In this document: in pieces, positions 1 to 5,556 of the stretch
Position numbering within the stretch: the stretch's first letter is position 1
Layout: each line of letters begins with the position of its first letter
Source of the DNA: an uncultured Oscillospiraceae bacterium
GTDB taxonomy: Bacteria; Bacillota; Clostridia; Oscillospirales; Oscillospiraceae
Assembly: GCA_900752305.1 (NCBI GenBank)
Contig: CAADUV010000090.1
Span: 1-5,609 of the forward strand
Reading direction: 5' to 3'
DNA: 5,609 bases
Made by a program: the position numbers and the translations under genes
Notes under the pieces: model-generated
Seen by the model: the letters and a program-made list of their open reading frames with translations, nothing else
Databases searched by the model: none
What the model was told of the DNA's origin: nothing

Positions 1-672
1 ATGAGAACGGTGTTCTTTGAATTGTGTTGGCGTAAGGACACGCGTTTGCTGATTTAAGCTTTTCCGCCCCTTGCGGTCAGTTCCTAGGTTATTCAGTGTG
101 AGTAAATCCGTCAATTCCCATTTGCTATAGGAAGTAATATTTTTGAATATGCTGTAGTGATCGTCAGGCAAATATTCGCAATTTAGCAGGGAGCACCATT
201 GCTGTTTCAAATACTTATGATCGAGATTATCGAAGAAATGTGTAAAATCTCCGATCATAATATAACAATCACCAAGCATTCTAATAAAGCTAAAAGCCTT
301 TTTTGAAAAATGAATGTTACTTTTATAGAGATTTGTGCGATAAGCTATAGCAACATCAGATAAACCGTCATTTAGCACTCTTTCGTTATAAAGTCTATTA
401 AGTATGAAACTATAGTATTGAAAAATGCAACGATCAATATGAGCTGCATAGCAAATATCTCGTTCTTTTACACTGATCCCCTCGTCTTTGTTGAATTTTG
501 TCATTTTTATTTTATAGTGAATAAAAGGGTAAAAACCATGTGTAGCTACTTTGTGTGGATTTGATATATATAGTGCTTGCTTTCCAATATCAGTGCGCAA
601 ATCAAAATGAGCATAAGGCTTTTTGCTGCGTTTAATAGTATCTGCAGAATGTAACCAGTCGTAGTCCGTCAT
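1..672 (-). CDS. drt2: DRT2-type (UG2) defence reverse transcriptase, N-terminal 224 residues, cut by window edge
   Basis: The minus-strand reading frame is open from ATG at 672-670 to the window edge, 224 codons with no stop, and continues beyond position 1. An AAGGAG ribosome binding site (677-682) lies 4 nt before the ATG. Residues 75-81 (YAAHIDR) and 109-112 (IAYR) resemble conserved blocks of bacterial 'unknown group'/Abi-like reverse transcriptases. Residues 141-152 (GDFTHFFDNLDH) fit RT motif A, with D142 the expected metal-binding aspartate. The palm YxDD box and thumb lie outside the window, so an intact active site cannot be confirmed. Known DRT2 enzymes (studied in Klebsiella pneumoniae) copy an upstream ncRNA into concatemeric cDNA that encodes a toxic stop-free protein after phage infection. 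The DRT2 call rests mainly on the ncRNA and junction promoter just upstream. The RT fragment alone supports only a UG/DRT-type RT. AT-rich codon use unlike the neighbouring genes suggests horizontal acquisition. Confidence 0.87.
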   Translation of the reverse strand, partial: MTDYDWLHSADTIKRSKKPYAHFDLRTDIGKQALYISNPHKVATHGFYPFIHYKIKMTKFNKDEGISVKERDICYAAHIDRCIFQYYSFILNRLYNERVLNDGLSDVAIAYRTNLYKSNIHFSKKAFSFIRMLGDCYIMIGDFTHFFDNLDHKYLKQQWCSLLNCEYLPDDHYSIFKNITSYSKWELTDLLTLNNLGTDRKGRKSLNQQTRVLTPTQFKEHRSH

Positions 673-691
673 AAATCTCCTTAATTTGCAA

Positions 692-733
692 TACCCACTG
701 ACATGGAGGATAGCATTCCTAAGCCAGTGGGTA
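692..733 (-). other. 3' stem-loop of the ncRNA, next to the RT ribosome binding site
   Basis: TACCCACTG (733-725 in the transcript) pairs perfectly over 9 bp with CAGTGGGTA (700-692). The apical part can form a further AGGA/TCCT helix. No U-tract follows, so it is not a typical terminator. It may be the RT-binding or 3'-end element of the ncRNA and could limit read-through into the RT message. Confidence 0.7.
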
Positions 734-835
734 ATATTGTTAAAACGTGGTTTCTCTAAAGTGCCAAAAATGGCGTGCATATAAAGATGCCAGCTATCCG
801 GTTTTGCAATTCTCGACTATGATATAATCGAGTGG

Positions 836-859
836 AAGGAGGTTATCATACCCGCTATG
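836..859 (+). promoter_or_regulatory. Shine-Dalgarno and ATG of the predicted neo mRNA
   Basis: AAGGAGG at 836-842 begins about 8 nt after the TATAAT box, so it would sit at the very 5' end of the mRNA made from the junction promoter. The only in-frame ATG of the repeat is at 857-859, 14 nt beyond the SD. That spacing is longer than usual, so an ATA or ATC start at 848 or 845 cannot be excluded. Confidence 0.55.
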
Positions 860-897
860 TGTATTGCAGTTCTGACATCCGAATGGGTGCCAGTCTG

Positions 898-948
898 GTC
901 AACAGCAGTCCAGGAATTCCTTGCCGGAATTATACTGGAGGAGTTGAC
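898..948 (-). other. Long hairpin within the ncRNA template region
   Basis: GTCAAC (948-943) pairs with GTTGAC (903-898). Inside are CCAG/CTGG and AATTCC/GGAATT helices closed by a GGCAA loop, making a long stem with small internal loops. The GTCAAC arm is also the complement of the neo -35 region, so the same bases serve RNA structure and a promoter element. Confidence 0.7.
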
Positions 949-988
949 AACAATCCCTTTCCCCCACACCTACGTGTGAAACATTTTT

Positions 989-1017
989 ATTATAGCAGAG
1001 ATTTTTAGAATACTCAA
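989..1017 (-). promoter_or_regulatory. Promoter of the ncRNA-RT operon
   Basis: Read on the minus strand, TTGAGT (1017-1012) is followed by exactly 17 nt and then a perfect TATAAT (994-989). The DNA upstream (about 1020-1080) is very AT-rich and could act as an UP element. A start near 982 would begin the transcript just before the CACAC hairpin. This is the only strong minus-strand promoter upstream of the reverse transcriptase. Confidence 0.85.
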
Positions 1018-1130: not shown

Positions 1131-3263
1131 CTATTGTGAACCTTTTTTTACTCTCTCCCGCACCTCCTCCAAGTGCCGACTGGTCTCCGGATACCGCTCC
1201 TTCAAGTAATGCGCCAGCGCCTGCCGATGCTCCGCCAGCTGTTGGGACACTTCTGGGTACTCCTGCCGGAGCTTAGCGGCGATCTCTGCGCGCTCCTGTT
1301 CTAAGGTGGAGAGCACTTCGCCCTCTGGCCGCTCCAGCAGCTTGGCCAGCTCCGCCAGATGCTCTTCCAGGTGCGCCAGCACGTCGTCCCGGTCCATGAC
1401 GCCCTGCCAGCGACCACTGTGCAGCAGGCGCACCAGGGCGTAGGCACGCTCCTCCTTGTTGGTGTGGGCCAGGGTGTCGATGAGCTGACCGGTCAGGTGC
1501 TCCATCTCCGCCTCGGCGTCTTTGCCGTAGGCCCACTGGATCTCTTGGCTGTACCGCAGCAGCTCCGGCACTGTCCGCCGCAGGCCGGTGGGGAGGAACC
1601 GCAGCAGCTGTTCCTGTACGATACCGGTATCCAGCAGGGCAGCGTACATGGTGCGGTGTACCGCCCCTTCCGCTACCAGCTCTCCAGCACCGAACCGGCG
1701 CAGCTCGTCGTTGACTTGGCCGATGTGTTCGGTGAGATAGAACCGGATGCCGCGGGCTTTCAGTTTCCGATACAGGATCACCAGCCGGTCGGCGGCGGAC
1801 ACGTCCACACTGACGATGCCGCTGGCGTCCACGATGACCGCCTTGGTGTCCGGCGTGATGGCATCCTCCAAATCCTGCTGGAACAGGGCCACGTTGGCAA
1901 AAAACAGGCTCCCACTGAACCGGTACAGCACCACATGGGGCAGAGGCTGCGCGTCACCCATCCGGTCTAAGGGATAGAAACCGGGATGGTCAGGGATGAC
2001 CCCCAAAAAGTCCCGGCGAGGCTGGGAGCTGCGCAGGATGACGTCGGCGAAGGAGAGCACCACGCCGATGACCACGCCGTAAATGGTGCCCAGCACCAGC
2101 ACCCCGGCGAAAGCGCCCATAAAGATGTAAAATTCCTTCCGGTTGGCCTGGAACAGCCGGTGCGCCAGGTCAAATTCCACCGCCCCCAGCAGAGCGGAGA
2201 TGACGATGGCCGTCAAGATGGGCACAGGCAGATATTGAATGAACCCGGTGCAAAAGAGCAGCAGCGCACCCATCAGGACAGCCGCCGCCAGAGACACCAG
2301 CTGGGTGTGCCCACCGAACTGCTCATTCATAGACGAGCGGGACACACTGCCGTTCACCGGGCAGCACCCCACTAGGCAGGCGGCGAAATTGGCCAGGGAA
2401 AAGCTCAAGATCTCTCGGTTGTCGCTGAGCTGGTAGTCGTTGCGCAGAGCGAAGCTGTTTTCCGCCAGCAGCGTCTCCGCCATGATGACGATGGCCACCG
2501 ATAGGCTCATACCCAGCCCCTTCACCGGCGTCAGCAGGGAGAAGTCCGGCAGATGCAGTCCCGGTAGCCCCGGTGCCACCGGAGACAGACAGGGGACACC
2601 GCGTCCCGCCAGGTCAAACCAAGCGGAGGCGGCGGCACCGGCCACCATGATGAGGATGGCCATGGGGAACTTGGGCAAAAAACGTTTCGCCAGCAGCAAA
2701 ATTGCCAGTGCAGCCACCCCCAGCCCCAGGGACAACCAGTGGACGGACTGACCGGCGCCGAGGATGTGCTCCACCAGCTCCAATAGTTCCCCCGTCCCGG
2801 CGGCGTGCCCCATGAGCTTGGGCACCTGCATGAGGATGATGGTGCAGCAAATGCCGCTGATAAAGCCGCCCATGACGGGTGCCGAGATGAAATTGAGCAC
2901 TTTTCCCGCCTTTAGCAGGGCGAACAGCAGCAGCCACACCCCCGTATAAAAGGCCAGCAGCGGCACCATGGCAATGGCACCCTCCGAGCCGAGGGGGATG
3001 CCCAGTCCTGCCACCATACTGCCCACCATGGCCGCTGGCGCGGCGTCCACGCCAAAAATAAACTGGGGAGAGGTGGAGAAAAGGGCAAACAAAAGGACCG
3101 GCAGCACCGACCCATACAGACCGTAGGCCGCTGGCAGACCGGCGATCTGGGCGTAGCCCATGGAGATGGGGATGGAGACTGCGGCGATGACCACGCCGGA
3201 CAACAAGTCCTGCCGGAGATAGCACCGCTGATAACCGGACAGGGTTTTGAGCAAAACATTCAT
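1131..3263 (-). CDS. SulP-family anion transporter with STAS domain and charged C-terminal extension
   Basis: The 710-residue protein begins MNVLLKTL, with AAAGGAG (3274-3280) 10 nt upstream. An in-frame ATG at 3308 lacks a ribosome binding site and was not used. Residues about 18-405 form the multi-span SulP membrane domain, with SulP-like blocks at 46-80 (YGLYGS, FSTSPQF). A STAS domain spans about 443-548, with GSLFFAN at 451-457 and the DASG phosphoacceptor-like motif at 479-482. SulP proteins move sulfate, bicarbonate or other anions across the cytoplasmic membrane; the substrate here cannot be read from sequence. Residues about 550-710 form an extra region rich in Glu, Arg, Lys, Leu and Ala, probably long helices or coiled coil, ending in repeated KERYPE/RQEYPE-like segments. 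Bacterial SulP proteins usually end soon after STAS. It lies on the same strand as azlCD, 154 bp downstream, and may be transcribed separately. Confidence 0.9.
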   Translation of the reverse strand: MNVLLKTLSGYQRCYLRQDLLSGVVIAAVSIPISMGYAQIAGLPAAYGLYGSVLPVLLFALFSTSPQFIFGVDAAPAAMVGSMVAGLGIPLGSEGAIAMVPLLAFYTGVWLLLFALLKAGKVLNFISAPVMGGFISGICCTIILMQVPKLMGHAAGTGELLELVEHILGAGQSVHWLSLGLGVAALAILLLAKRFLPKFPMAILIMVAGAAASAWFDLAGRGVPCLSPVAPGLPGLHLPDFSLLTPVKGLGMSLSVAIVIMAETLLAENSFALRNDYQLSDNREILSFSLANFAACLVGCCPVNGSVSRSSMNEQFGGHTQLVSLAAAVLMGALLLFCTGFIQYLPVPILTAIVISALLGAVEFDLAHRLFQANRKEFYIFMGAFAGVLVLGTIYGVVIGVVLSFADVILRSSQPRRDFLGVIPDHPGFYPLDRMGDAQPLPHVVLYRFSGSLFFANVALFQQDLEDAITPDTKAVIVDASGIVSVDVSAADRLVILYRKLKARGIRFYLTEHIGQVNDELRRFGAGELVAEGAVHRTMYAALLDTGIVQEQLLRFLPTGLRRTVPELLRYSQEIQWAYGKDAEAEMEHLTGQLIDTLAHTNKEERAYALVRLLHSGRWQGVMDRDDVLAHLEEHLAELAKLLERPEGEVLSTLEQERAEIAAKLRQEYPEVSQQLAEHRQALAHYLKERYPETSRHLEEVRERVKKGSQ

Positions 3264-3293
3264 GGGGTAGAAACTCCTTTCGGAACAAAGAGA

Positions 3294-3316
3294 ACGGGAC
3301 GGCAGCACCGTCCCGT
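3294..3316 (-). terminator. GC-rich hairpin with T-rich tail in the sulP leader
   Basis: ACGGGACGG and CCGTCCCGT form a perfect 9-bp stem with a 5-nt loop, followed on the minus strand by TCTCTTTG. It sits about 100 bp after azlD and 31 nt before the sulP start. It could be the azlCD terminator or a sulP leader attenuator. The T-tract is interrupted, so the call is tentative. Confidence 0.4.
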
Positions 3317-3363
3317 CGTTGGGAAATCGTTAGGGTTTTGGGTCATCCATATGGTAACATATC

Positions 3364-3393
3364 CCCCCTCTAAATGCAATGAAATAGAGGGGG
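3364..3393. repeat. Inverted repeat downstream of azlD
   Basis: CCCCCTCTA (3364-3372) and TAGAGGGGG (3385-3393) form a perfect 9-bp stem with a 12-nt loop, starting 25 nt after the azlD stop codon. No T-tract follows on either strand, so it is not a standard intrinsic terminator. It may stabilise the azlCD mRNA 3' end. Confidence 0.5.
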
Positions 3394-3417
3394 ATAAAAG
3401 GGAGAGAGGATAGCAGA

Positions 3418-3744
3418 TCACACAAAGCAGCACTGCACCAAAACCATATGCAGCACCGTACCAGCCACCAAGCTCAGCACCATATTCCGTTTCCGAAGGT
3501 GAACCACCACCACACAGGCCAAAGAGATCAGCTCCGGCAGACCATAATAAGCGGTGAACAAAGCGTCCTTCAGGCAGTAGATGACCAAAAAGCCCATGAC
3601 CGCCGCCGGCAGCACCCGACCCAGCCGGACGATGGCATCCGGCAGTTTTTTCCCCTCCGGGAAGAGGGCGAAGGGCAGGAACCGGGTGGTCACGGTGCCC
3701 AGTACCACCATGGCGATGGTGAGGATGCGTTCTGTTACGGTCAT
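3418..3744 (-). CDS. azlD: AzlD family, small subunit of branched-chain amino acid exporter
   Basis: This 108-residue hydrophobic protein has the family length and the TRFLPF motif at 20-25, followed by a P-E-G-K-K-L-P-D-A segment and about four membrane spans. The LGRVLPAAVMGFLVIYCL stretch is typical of AzlD. It works with AzlC in the cytoplasmic membrane to export branched-chain amino acids and their analogues; Bacillus subtilis azlCD is the reference. Its ATG overlaps the azlC stop as ATGA, a sign of translational coupling in one operon. The exact substrate is inferred from the family. Confidence 0.93.
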   Translation of the reverse strand: MTVTERILTIAMVVLGTVTTRFLPFALFPEGKKLPDAIVRLGRVLPAAVMGFLVIYCLKDALFTAYYGLPELISLACVVVVHLRKRNMVLSLVAGTVLHMVLVQCCFV

Positions 3745-4439
3745 ACCGATCCCTCCCGTTCCTTAGGTTCCCGTTTGCCGTCCAGGCAGACGCAGAGGAC
3801 GATGAGCGCCAGGGCAGGCAGGATGAAGTTCTTGCTTCCCAGCACCAGCAAGCACACCAGGGCAATGCCCAGTCCCATCCAGCCCGAGCGCTGTTTCTCC
3901 CTGCCCTCCAGCTGCCCCAGGAAGAGGACGGTGATGAGGGCGGTCAGAATAAAGTCCACACCGTTGGTGTTGATGGGCAGAGCGGAGCCCACCAGATAAC
4001 CCAGGGCGCTGCTGGACACCCAGTAGATTTGATCTAATAAAGTGATGAAGAAGTAGAACCAACCCCGATCCACCCCTTCCGGCGGGGTGATGGCACTGTT
4101 CAGGGCAAAGGTCTCGTCGCACATCCCGAAGATGAGATACCCCTTCTTCCACCCCATGTCCCGATACTTGCCCAGCATGGCCAAGCCATAGAACAGGTGG
4201 CGGGCGTTGACCATGAGGGTCATGATGAAGGCGTTGAGGGGTTGGAAAGTGCCCACCAGCAAGTTCACCGTGACGAACTCCATGGAGCCGGCAAAGATGA
4301 AGATGCTCATGGCCAGGATGTAGAAGATGGGCAGACCCATGCTCTTCATGAGCAGGCCGTAGGATAGTCCTAAAAAGAGAAATTCCACCCAAATAGATAC
4401 GGTGTAGGGGAAAGCCGCCCGAAGGGCTTTTCGTTTCAT
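3741..4439 (-). CDS. azlC: AzlC family, large subunit of branched-chain amino acid exporter
   Basis: This 232-residue membrane protein has the AzlC signatures AGSMEF (about 50-55), NARHLFYG (78-85) and DETFAL (108-113), and several hydrophobic spans. The start at 4439 is preceded by GGAG (4450-4453) with 10 nt spacing. The protein ends in a short charged tail (about 221-232), and its TGA overlaps the azlD ATG by 4 nt. With AzlD it forms a branched-chain amino acid export complex. The divergent XRE/cupin regulator next door and the repeated motif between them suggest that this operon is regulated locally. Confidence 0.94.
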   Translation of the reverse strand: MKRKALRAAFPYTVSIWVEFLFLGLSYGLLMKSMGLPIFYILAMSIFIFAGSMEFVTVNLLVGTFQPLNAFIMTLMVNARHLFYGLAMLGKYRDMGWKKGYLIFGMCDETFALNSAITPPEGVDRGWFYFFITLLDQIYWVSSSALGYLVGSALPINTNGVDFILTALITVLFLGQLEGREKQRSGWMGLGIALVCLLVLGSKNFILPALALIVLCVCLDGKREPKEREGSV

Positions 4440-4458
4440 CTCGGCTCAACTCCAATCT

Positions 4459-4483
4459 CCCTTGCCTTTGCGGCAGGGTTTTT
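4459..4483 (+). other. Terminator-like hairpin in the divergent promoter region
   Basis: CCCT-t-GCC (4459-4466) pairs with GGCAGGG (4472-4478) around a 5-nt loop, followed by TTTTT. It looks like a plus-strand intrinsic terminator, yet no plus-strand gene precedes it. It could stop antisense transcription coming out of azlC. Confidence 0.4.
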
Positions 4484-4490
4484 GTATAAT
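4462..4490 (+). promoter_or_regulatory. Probable promoter of the XRE/cupin regulator
   Basis: TTGCCT (4462-4467), 17 nt, then a perfect TATAAT (4485-4490). A start near 4497 gives a leader of about 95 nt that contains the ATCGAAC copies, allowing autoregulation. Confidence 0.6.
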
Positions 4491-4514
4491 GAAGGTATCA
4501 TACATCGAACGCAA
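4486..4514 (-). promoter_or_regulatory. Probable azlCD promoter
   Basis: On the minus strand, TTGCGT (4514-4509) is followed by 17 nt and CATTAT (4491-4486). The -35 overlaps an ATCGAAC copy (4504-4510), so a regulator bound there would block it. The -10 overlaps the opposing -10 of the regulator gene, so the two promoters are likely mutually exclusive. Confidence 0.55.
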
Positions 4515-4561
4515 AGACAGTTTATCGAACGATGTTGCAATATATCTTACAACTGTTCGAT
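4504..4561. promoter_or_regulatory. Triple ATCGAAC motif, likely operators of the XRE regulator
   Basis: ATCGAAC occurs at 4504-4510 and 4524-4530 in the same orientation, 20 bp apart, and as the inverted GTTCGAT at 4555-4561. The second and third copies form an inverted pair around an AT-rich centre. The first overlaps the azlC -35. This arrangement between divergent genes fits binding of a dimeric XRE protein at several sites. Confidence 0.55.
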
Positions 4562-4591
4562 ATATTTGTCAACCGGAAAAGGAGCAAGCAG

Positions 4592-5152
4592 ATGGATTGG
4601 GATTTGGGACGGATCATCGCCATGAATTTGAAGCAGCTGCGGACGGAGCGCAGCCTGACCTTGGGACAGCTGGCCAAGGAGTCTGGGGTCAGCAAGGCCA
4701 TCCTGTCCGACATGGAGAAGGGGGAGAGCAACCCCACCATCAACACCATCATCAAGGTGTCCAAAGGGCTGAACGTCCCCTATTCCCGCCTTATGGAGGG
4801 GGTGGAGCCGGAGTCCACCTTGGTGCGGCAGCAGGAGACGGTGATGCAGGCCAACGAGAACCATCACTATCGCATCTTTTGCTATTTCACCACCTCTCCC
4901 AAACGCAACTTCGAGCTGTTTCGGGTGGAGCTGGACCCCAACTCCTCCAACGTCTCCATCGCCCATCCCCCCAAATCCCAGGAATATCTATATGTGCTGG
5001 AAGGGGAGCTGACCTTAGAGACTGAGACAGCATCCTACACCCTGCACCCGGGAGACTCCCTGGGCTTTGCCTCGTCCGTGCCCCACACCTACCACAACCG
5101 GCAGACGGAGCAGGCCGTGTTCCTCTGTATCAATTACCACCCCAACTTTTGA
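4592..5152 (+). CDS. XRE-family transcriptional regulator with C-terminal cupin domain
   Basis: The 186-residue protein starts MDWDLGRI, chosen because AAAGGAG lies 7 nt before this ATG; the upstream ATG at 4532 would add 20 residues with no ribosome binding site. Residues about 8-65 form a helix-turn-helix of the XRE/HTH_3 type (LGQLAKESGVSKAILSDMEKG). Residues about 110-183 form a small cupin barrel, with EYLYVLEGEL in motif 1 and HPGDSLGFASSVPHTYHN in motif 2, probably sensing a small ligand or metal. Regulators of this kind are often next to amino acid exporters. It is divergent from azlCD and likely represses or tunes it from the ATCGAAC sites. The ligand is unknown; branched-chain amino acids are only a guess. 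Confidence 0.92.
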   Translation: MDWDLGRIIAMNLKQLRTERSLTLGQLAKESGVSKAILSDMEKGESNPTINTIIKVSKGLNVPYSRLMEGVEPESTLVRQQETVMQANENHHYRIFCYFTTSPKRNFELFRVELDPNSSNVSIAHPPKSQEYLYVLEGELTLETETASYTLHPGDSLGFASSVPHTYHNRQTEQAVFLCINYHPNF

Positions 5153-5169
5153 GGAGAGAGGAGTCTCTT

Positions 5170-5556
5170 ATGCTGAAACGATACGCCTGGTTAGATACAT
5201 TTCTCCGCGCCCACTCCGGTGTGACCTACGATTGGAAGGAGGAGTGGCAATGGCACCGCTACCTGTTGGACGGCAAGCTGTTCGCCGCCCTCTGCCAGCC
5301 CGACTCGGAGCACAAGGACTACGATTGCCGCCCCCTGCTCACGGTGAAATGCGAGCCGGAGTTGGCCGTCGCCCTGCGGGCGGAGTACCCGGAGGACATC
5401 CTGCCTGGGTTCTACATGAACAAGACCCACTGGAACACCATCTTCCTGGATGGGCATCTGTCCCAAGACCAGCTGGAACAGTTCTGCGACCGCTCCTATC
5501 AGCTGATCTTCAGCAAGCTCACCCAAAAACGCCAGCGGGAGCTGACGGAAGGATAA
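5170..5556 (+). CDS. MmcQ/YjbR-family protein
   Basis: This 128-residue protein matches the MmcQ/YjbR (former DUF419) family: LTVKCEPELA at 57-66 and PGFYMNKTHWNTIFLDG at 79-95 are the typical blocks. The family has a double-wing fold like some DNA-binding proteins, but its cellular role is not established. The ATG at 5170 was chosen because GGAG (5160-5163) lies 6 nt upstream; a TTG at 5149 would overlap the regulator stop. It begins 17 bp after the regulator and is probably co-transcribed with it, ending just before a strong terminator. Confidence 0.9.
   Translation: MLKRYAWLDTFLRAHSGVTYDWKEEWQWHRYLLDGKLFAALCQPDSEHKDYDCRPLLTVKCEPELAVALRAEYPEDILPGFYMNKTHWNTIFLDGHLSQDQLEQFCDRSYQLIFSKLTQKRQRELTEG

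What the first reader, a model, noticed from the sequence alone, without database searches (positions are those of the whole stretch)
820..954. A perfect promoter that exists only after reverse transcription
TGATATAAT (820-828) and TTGACA (944-949) are in the wrong order in the genome. Joining 954 to 811 places TTGACA exactly 17 nt before TATAAT. A 12/12 consensus match with optimal spacing and an extended -10 is unlikely by chance, and it sits inside the RNA gene just upstream of an RT. It matches the DRT2 mechanism, in which the neo promoter forms at cDNA repeat junctions.
Basis: partly seen in the sequence, partly recalled or inferred. Interest (0 to 1): 0.95.

Follow-up and report, generated by a model that had tools for sequence, protein, structure and literature searches.

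The report
Split promoter joined by reverse transcription
This bacterial locus encodes an RNA and a reverse transcriptase of the DRT2 phage-defence family in which a perfect promoter is stored as two halves in swapped order, predicted to be joined, together with a stop-free reading frame, only when the RNA is copied head-to-tail into DNA; it and its close relatives carry a matched pair of short predicted 'jump' words that differs from the pair in the studied Klebsiella system.

Summary
The boxes lie in an ncRNA (Rfam RT-6, 61.8 bits) upstream of a reverse transcriptase matching PADLOC Drt2 (5.8e-80).

Beyond the reading: the same word, CAAT in cDNA (ATTG in RNA), sits at both template edges (807-810, 951-954), where Klebsiella DRT2 has ACA/ACA. 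In the Clostridial branch (12 loci with this word, window included; 5 with ATAC; 1 with AATA) 18 of 18 have a join with spacer 17, a length that is a multiple of three (ten lengths, 126-165 nt) and one open frame; four were held-out loci. The words follow clades of the RT tree. I read this as a deep DRT2 branch with its own jump word. Published work found Neo annotation "more challenging" in divergent clades. Ten more distant plasmid DRT2 loci gave no convincing unit.

The parts
989..1017 (-). Putative promoter of the ncRNA: TTGAGT (1017-1012), 17 nt, TATAAT (994-989), TG before the -10
   Evidence: 10 of 12 consensus match; shuffles of the region average 1.4 such sites, so it rests on its place 6 nt before the RT-6 start
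910..983 (-). Rfam RT-6 RNA (RF03027): 5' end of the ncRNA and 5' edge of the template
   Evidence: 61.8 bits against a gathering score of 46.7
690..983 (-). Proposed ncRNA; 3' end not determined
   Evidence: folds better than 200 of 200 shuffles, z -3.78; aligned in 11 loci
963..980 (-). 5' handle hairpin of the ncRNA (arms 980-974 and 969-963)
   Evidence: 7 of 7 pairs with changes on both sides, 93.5% of cells paired
951..954 (+). Jump word copy 1, CAAT in the cDNA (ATTG in the RNA), 5' template edge
   Evidence: ATTG in 11 of 11 rows of A2
944..949 (+). -35 box TTGACA
   Evidence: sequence; TTGACA in 10 of 11 branch loci and TTGACG in L011
811..954 (+). Predicted repeat unit of the cDNA, 144 nt
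   Evidence: join detector, frame
812..952 (+). Stop-free frame (predicted neo), 48 codons per repeat including the codon across the junction; predicted two helices
   Evidence: AlphaFold pLDDT 67
857..859 (+). First in-frame ATG downstream of the -10 box; AAGGAGG at 836-842 lies 14 nt before it, longer than usual
820..828 (+). Extended -10 box TGATATAAT
   Evidence: TGN extension in 11 of 11 branch loci
812..832 (-). Hairpin around the -10 box in the ncRNA (arms 832-827 and 817-812)
   Evidence: only 74.2% of cells paired in 11 loci, not well supported
807..810 (+). Jump word copy 2, CAAT (ATTG in the RNA), 3' template edge
   Evidence: ATTG in 10 of 11 rows of A2, ATTA in L074
708..799 (-). 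Pseudoknot helix, arms 799-793 and 714-708
   Evidence: 6 of 7 pairs with changes on both sides, 96.1% of cells paired
693..732 (-). 3' hairpin, arms 732-723 and 702-693
   Evidence: 9 of 10 pairs with changes on both sides, 100% of cells paired
1..672 (-). DRT2 reverse transcriptase, first 224 residues; cut by the window end before the YxDD motif
   Evidence: PADLOC Drt2 5.8e-80; start by comparison with relatives

Best explanation
The two out-of-order promoter boxes lie near the two ends of the predicted template of a DRT2-family ncRNA, and repeated head-to-tail reverse transcription of that template would likely join them into a working promoter in front of a stop-free gene (neo). Predicted steps: the ncRNA (about 983 to 690, minus strand) binds the RT; the RT copies the template from 811 up to 954; the cDNA end ...CAAT re-anneals from the ATTG at the 5' template edge to the identical ATTG at the 3' edge and copying restarts; the 144-bp repeats become double-stranded; each junction makes TTGACA-17-TATAAT; transcription and translation give a hydrophobic 48-residue repeat protein that would arrest the infected cell. 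Shown here: the sequence architecture, its conservation in the branch, and clade-specific words at both edges. Inferred from Klebsiella DRT2: cDNA synthesis and jumping, second strand, transcription, translation and growth arrest.
For: RT is Drt2 by profile and P0001, 77% identical to it, matches Klebsiella DRT2 structures at 2.2e-60. RT-6 ncRNA upstream on the same strand. Full join criterion 0 of 1000 shuffles, 3 of 1728 control windows. 18 of 18 branch loci with spacer 17, multiple of three, one open frame, 126-165 nt, 4 of them held out. TTGACA, TATAAT and the 17 nt are kept in the ATAC loci although the letters between them differ. RT tree: CAAT rows one clade (100/98), ATAC rows L004 and L005 another (100/99). 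ncRNA helices covary. All 17 CAAT and ATAC units have an in-frame start codon downstream of the -10, 11 of 17 after a GGAG-bearing stretch; 55-61% hydrophobic residues. Published mechanism: PMC12039810, PMC11100668.
Against: No experiment on this locus. The RT is cut by the window, so its YxDD motif was not seen. The detector looks only at spacers 16-18 and demands a shared word of 3 or more; a word of 4 or more arises in 5.6% of random flanks, so the single-locus words (AATA, ATCT, CTTC) are weak by themselves. In 8 loci the region was cut around a motif that includes the complement of the -35 core. L074 and L106 share only 3 letters; L011 has 10 of 12; L005 ties with two units that are not multiples of three and L074 with a 117-nt one. 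No consistent synonymous-change signal in the neo frame. Ten plasmid DRT2 loci show no convincing unit. The ATG is 14 nt from the Shine-Dalgarno stretch. Further pair types are not above shuffles (314 of 500).
Confidence: 0.88

Rival explanations
1. Chance arrangement of two common hexamers beside a reverse transcriptase.
For: Both hexamers can arise in AT-rich intergenic DNA; swapped boxes arose in 2 of 500 whole-window shuffles.
Against: Full criterion 0 of 1000 shuffles; found in 18 of 18 branch loci.
Confidence: 0.01
2. The letters are conserved because the ncRNA needs them (RT contacts, hairpin loop, RT-6 core) and the resemblance to a promoter is secondary.
For: UUGUUGUCAAC lies in the conserved core of RT-6, and the -10 complement lies in a hairpin of the RNA.
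Against: In the ATAC loci the flanking letters differ but TTGACA, TATAAT and 17 nt remain; the unit is a multiple of three in ten different lengths; Klebsiella box mutants lose transcription and defence (PMC12039810, part 2).
Confidence: 0.06
3. A DRT2 locus whose product differs here: inactive in this genome, or cDNA made with another junction or another use of the repeats.
For: The RT is cut by the window; two relatives have broken RT genes (L008 and L010); repeats are longer than the published 111-129 nt.
Against: The visible 224 residues are intact and hold the conserved GDFTHFFDNLDH stretch; the frame and spacing are precise.
Confidence: 0.05

Closest known systems
Klebsiella pneumoniae DRT2 (PMC12039810, PMC11100668)
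   Same: RT family; ncRNA upstream of the RT; template with swapped -10 and -35 boxes that would lie 17 bp apart after the join; repeated short word at the template edges; unit a multiple of three with one open frame; hydrophobic, probably helical repeat.
   Different: Word ATTG/ATTG instead of ACA/ACA; unit 144 nt (branch 126-165) against 111-129 nt published; 5 + 12 nt around the junction against about 6 + 11 as I reckon it from the paper's wording; no extra nucleotide at the junction is needed; RT on a far branch of the tree, P0001 matching Klebsiella over residues 18-428 at 208 bits.
Rfam RT-6 RNA (RF03027)
   Same: The window and relatives pass its gathering score.
   Different: The family covers 75 nt only; here it is the 5' part of a longer ncRNA with the template and a 3' scaffold.
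DRT9 and DRT10 (class 2 DRTs with ncRNA)
   Same: RNA-templated repetitive cDNA synthesis (passages).
   Different: Their products are poly-dA or tandem-repeat cDNA not described as genes; the Drt9 profile scores 0.00082 here against Drt2 at 5.8e-80.

Membership tests
DRT2 (UG2) defence system | RT of the Drt2 profile family | tested here: met
   PADLOC Drt2 5.8e-80 and 3.2e-56; P0001 against 9c0i 2.2e-60
DRT2 (UG2) defence system | Structured ncRNA upstream of the RT on the same strand | tested here: met
   RT-6 hit, covarying helices including a pseudoknot, fold z -3.78
DRT2 (UG2) defence system | Swapped -10 and -35 boxes that join at 17 bp | tested here: met
DRT2 (UG2) defence system | Unit a multiple of three with one stop-free frame across junctions | tested here: met
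   144 nt; 18 of 18 branch loci
DRT2 (UG2) defence system | Intact catalytic YxDD | tested here: inconclusive
   Window ends at RT residue 224, before the motif; present as YSDD in the consensus of 22 relatives
DRT2 (UG2) defence system | Phage-triggered concatemeric cDNA, neo mRNA and Neo protein; phage defence | not testable with these tools
   Needs expression and infection experiments
Klebsiella-type subgroup of DRT2 | ACA-1 and ACA-2 at the template edges | tested here: not met
   ATTG at both edges
Klebsiella-type subgroup of DRT2 | Repeat of 111-129 nt | tested here: not met
   144 nt
Rfam RT-6 (RF03027) | Score over the gathering threshold | tested here: met
   61.8 against 46.7 bits
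DRT9 | RT of the Drt9 profile family | tested here: not met
   0.00082 over 57 residues against Drt2 at 5.8e-80

The most novel reading that the evidence does not exclude
DRT2 is a general gene-assembly device with an interchangeable address: each deep clade carries its own matched pair of jump words (RNA letters ACA, ATTG, GTAT, TATT and perhaps others) that sets where the cDNA re-anneals, while selection holds the join to 17 bp between the promoter boxes and to a whole number of codons. The divergent clades for which published Neo annotation was difficult would then use the same mechanism with a different word.
Probability: 0.65. Interest if true: 0.72.

Novelty: new variant of a known kind. 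Interest (0 to 1): 0.6.

Why it matters
[quoted passage not shown] Here one such branch, found in Clostridia and in phage or viral records, shows the same architecture in its sequence once the jump word is allowed to change; whether it is one of the clades they meant I could not check. It gives a simple rule (repeated word, 17 nt, multiple of three) for finding genes that no linear annotation contains, and a direct test of how template jumping is addressed: change one word, the other, or both.

Tried and rejected
Searches that gave little: viral contigs with the window RT, with alignment A1 and with L005's RT confirmed no relative; the 15-mer pattern scan gave 59 viral stretches, none of which I judged a DRT2 ncRNA from the printed contexts (they were not searched for RTs), and I reused them as control. 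Plasmids at DNA level with the window and E. coli genomes with L090's upstream region: no match. No whole genome is held for the window, so its host is unknown. Two RT-6 hits under the cut-off (L012, L072) were not pursued: L012 lies beside tRNA genes by my reading.

Codon-position and synonymous-change comparison of the neo frame in seven pairs of units: no consistent signal, so I do not claim purifying selection on residues.

Ten plasmid DRT2 loci (L087, L089, L093-L097, L099, L100, L102) gave no convincing unit, and two (L088, L101) had only 90 and 187 nt of upstream DNA. L089 is split between 144 nt with spacer 16 and 145 nt with spacer 17. L092 and L098 (10 of 12 each) are weak. L090 reads as ATCT; its edges agree in 5 of 6 letters (ATCTGT/ATCTAT), so it may be a drifted relative of the Klebsiella word.

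DRT9 and DRT10 were considered and set aside. The Klebsiella locus could not serve as a positive control for the detector: I searched its protein only among plasmids, where the best match was 52% identical.

Full report
OBSERVATION. The sequence shows TGATATAAT at 820-828 and TTGACA at 944-949 on the + strand, in the order opposite to a promoter. Joining 954 to 811 gives a 144-nt unit with TTGACA, 17 nt, TATAAT and a TG extension. The frame that starts at 812 has no stop around the repeat; the other five frames have 1 to 4 stops per unit. The four bases before each edge are the same, CAAT at 951-954 and at 807-810, so the join falls on a short repeat.

CHANCE. Boxes in this order within 210 nt arose in 2 of 500 shuffles of the window. 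The full criterion (promoter at least 11/12, spacer 17, repeated word of at least 4 nt, multiple of three, open frame) arose in 0 of 1000 shuffles of the region upstream of the RT, and in 0 to 3 of 1000 for the six other loci so tested. In 1728 windows of 500 nt of viral DNA taken as unrelated it arose 3 times, and 0 times with 12/12; looser criteria arise more often (19 and 90 of 1728). With the boxes fixed, random flanks share a word of 3 or more in 20.9% and of 4 or more in 5.6% of cases.

WHAT IS THERE. On the minus strand a promoter-like site (TTGAGT-17-TATAAT with TG, 1017-989) precedes Rfam RT-6 at 983-910 (61.8 bits) and then a reverse transcriptase whose start, by comparison with relatives, is at 672; the ORF tool reads it from 780, inside the ncRNA. 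The RT matches PADLOC Drt2 (5.8e-80). P0001, 77% identical over 86% of the query, matches the Klebsiella DRT2 structures (2.2e-60). The window ends within the RT, before the YxDD motif. The rest of the window is ordinary: a SulP-type permease with a STAS domain, AzlD, AzlC, an HTH-cupin regulator and a YjbR protein.

THE RNA. Window 690-983 folds better than 200 of 200 shuffles (z -3.78). In an alignment of 11 loci (A2) four helices that I named from the window were counted: 92.4% of cells paired against 37-49% for slid versions, 24 of 30 pairs with changes on both sides. The 5' handle, the pseudoknot (799-793 with 714-708) and the 3' hairpin carry this; the hairpin around the -10 is weaker (74%). 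The number of further pair types was not above shuffles (314 of 500). The ATTG at the 5' template edge is invariant (11 of 11); the one at the 3' edge is ATTG in 10 of 11 and ATTA in L074.

RELATIVES. I fetched relatives by RT protein from genome contigs (2 loci), by RT-6 and by RT from whole genomes (RT-6 over its cut-off: 5 of 394, 5 of 394, mostly the same genomes, 3 of 200; RT: 4 of 391, 3 of 64, 4 of 200, 2 of 29, 2 of 95, 4 of 160), from phage and plasmid records and from viral contigs (1 locus). A detector that ranks joins by promoter match plus word length, without using length modulo three or frame, was run on 30 loci; it allows spacers of 16 to 18 only and demands a shared word of 3 or more. 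All 11 RT-6-branch loci have a join with spacer 17, a length that is a multiple of three (126, 141, 144, 153, 159 or 165 nt), one open frame and a promoter of 10 to 12 of 12. For L074 that join ties with one of 117 nt and spacer 16. L004 (Clostridioides phage HGP05), L005 and L076 behave the same with the words ATAC, ATAC and AATA; L005 ties with two units that are not multiples of three. Outside the branch L090 and L091 fit (ATCT, CTTC), L092 and L098 weakly; ten others do not, and two were cut short upstream. In 8 loci the region was cut around a motif that includes the -35 complement, so their -35 is partly chosen; their -10, spacing, length and frame are not. Four loci fetched afterwards served as a held-out test: L103 (150 nt), L105 (144), L106 (135, word of 3 letters) and L107 (135) all fit at first rank. 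That makes 18 of 18 in the Clostridial branch. They are not all independent: L009 and L075, and L011 and L077, are 92% and 84% identical in the unit. L104 and the fragments L081, L083 and L085 were not run.

TREE. In a tree of 29 RTs the CAAT rows form one clade (100/98, 10 rows; L008, whose RT has stops, is absent), the ATAC rows L004 and L005 another (100/99); L076 (AATA) stands next to the CAAT clade with poor support (90/68). Klebsiella DRT2 lies far off with L090 (99/95). L103 and L105-L107 came later and are not in it. So the word differs between clades, at both edges, while the boxes, the 17 nt and the multiple of three stay. That is what one expects if the cDNA end re-anneals by the word; it is inference, not measurement, and the words seen in one locus each (AATA, ATCT, CTTC) are weak by themselves.

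THE PREDICTED PROTEIN. The repeats are 55-61% hydrophobic in the 17 CAAT and ATAC loci. Each of these has an in-frame ATG, GTG or TTG downstream of the -10; 11 of 17 have a GGAG-bearing stretch before or at it, L003 has AAGGA, L008 GGGGG, and L002, L010, L011 and L077 only GGGA-type ones. Here AAGGAGG (836-842) is 14 nt before the ATG at 857, longer than usual. AlphaFold of one repeat with ten sequences gives two helices (8-25, 27-46) at pLDDT 67 and pTM 0.36, a weak model that agrees with the helical repeats published for Neo. Codon-level comparisons gave no consistent sign of residue conservation.

PUBLISHED WORK. PMC12039810 (parts 1-3 of 10 and passages) reports for Klebsiella DRT2 the swapped boxes with 17-bp spacing after the join, units of 111, 117, 120 and 129 nt, a junction fixed as TGTTA in the authors' simulations, and loss of defence on box mutation. 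PMC11100668 (parts 1-3 of 8, section 10 and passages) reports rolling-circle reverse transcription with ACA-1/ACA-2 and says that divergent clades were harder to annotate. Searches of the held library and the passages I saw of PMC12596737, PMC12632851 and PMC13213688 showed no mention of another jump word; supplements and subscription papers were not seen, so it may be in print elsewhere.

VERDICT. By sequence it is a DRT2 system, not of the ACA subgroup: a new variant of a known kind. Shown: architecture, conservation, clade-specific words at both edges. Inferred: jumping, second strand, transcription, translation, arrest.

Noticed in passing
window 689-692 (minus strand 692-689): A third CAAT copy (ATTG in the RNA) just after the 3' hairpin, near the likely ncRNA 3' end. 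It is ATTG in 8 of 11 rows of A2; L074 has ATTA both here and at the 3' template edge, but L009 and L075 have CTTT here and ATTG at the edge. Unexplained.
   Followed up: partly
L090:1040-1152: Rfam RT-12 (RF03016, 72.9 bits) directly follows the predicted template of a Klebsiella-side DRT2, as its 3' scaffold, whereas RT-6 marks the 5' edge in the window's branch: two Rfam families seem to be parts of DRT2 ncRNAs.
   Followed up: partly
L008 (G175) and L010 (G191): RT genes look broken (2 TAA in G175; split in two frames in G191) while the template unit still has spacer 17, multiple of three and an open frame.
   Followed up: no
L004, L103, L003, L005: DRT2 loci in phage or viral records: Clostridioides phage HGP05 and an IMG/VR contig with ATAC words, two 'Bacteriophage sp.' scaffolds. 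L003 also has group II intron domain hits on the other strand upstream of the RT (1460-1772).
   Followed up: partly
window 1131-5556: Ordinary neighbours: SulP-type permease with STAS domain, AzlD, AzlC, HTH-cupin regulator, YjbR protein.
   Followed up: no
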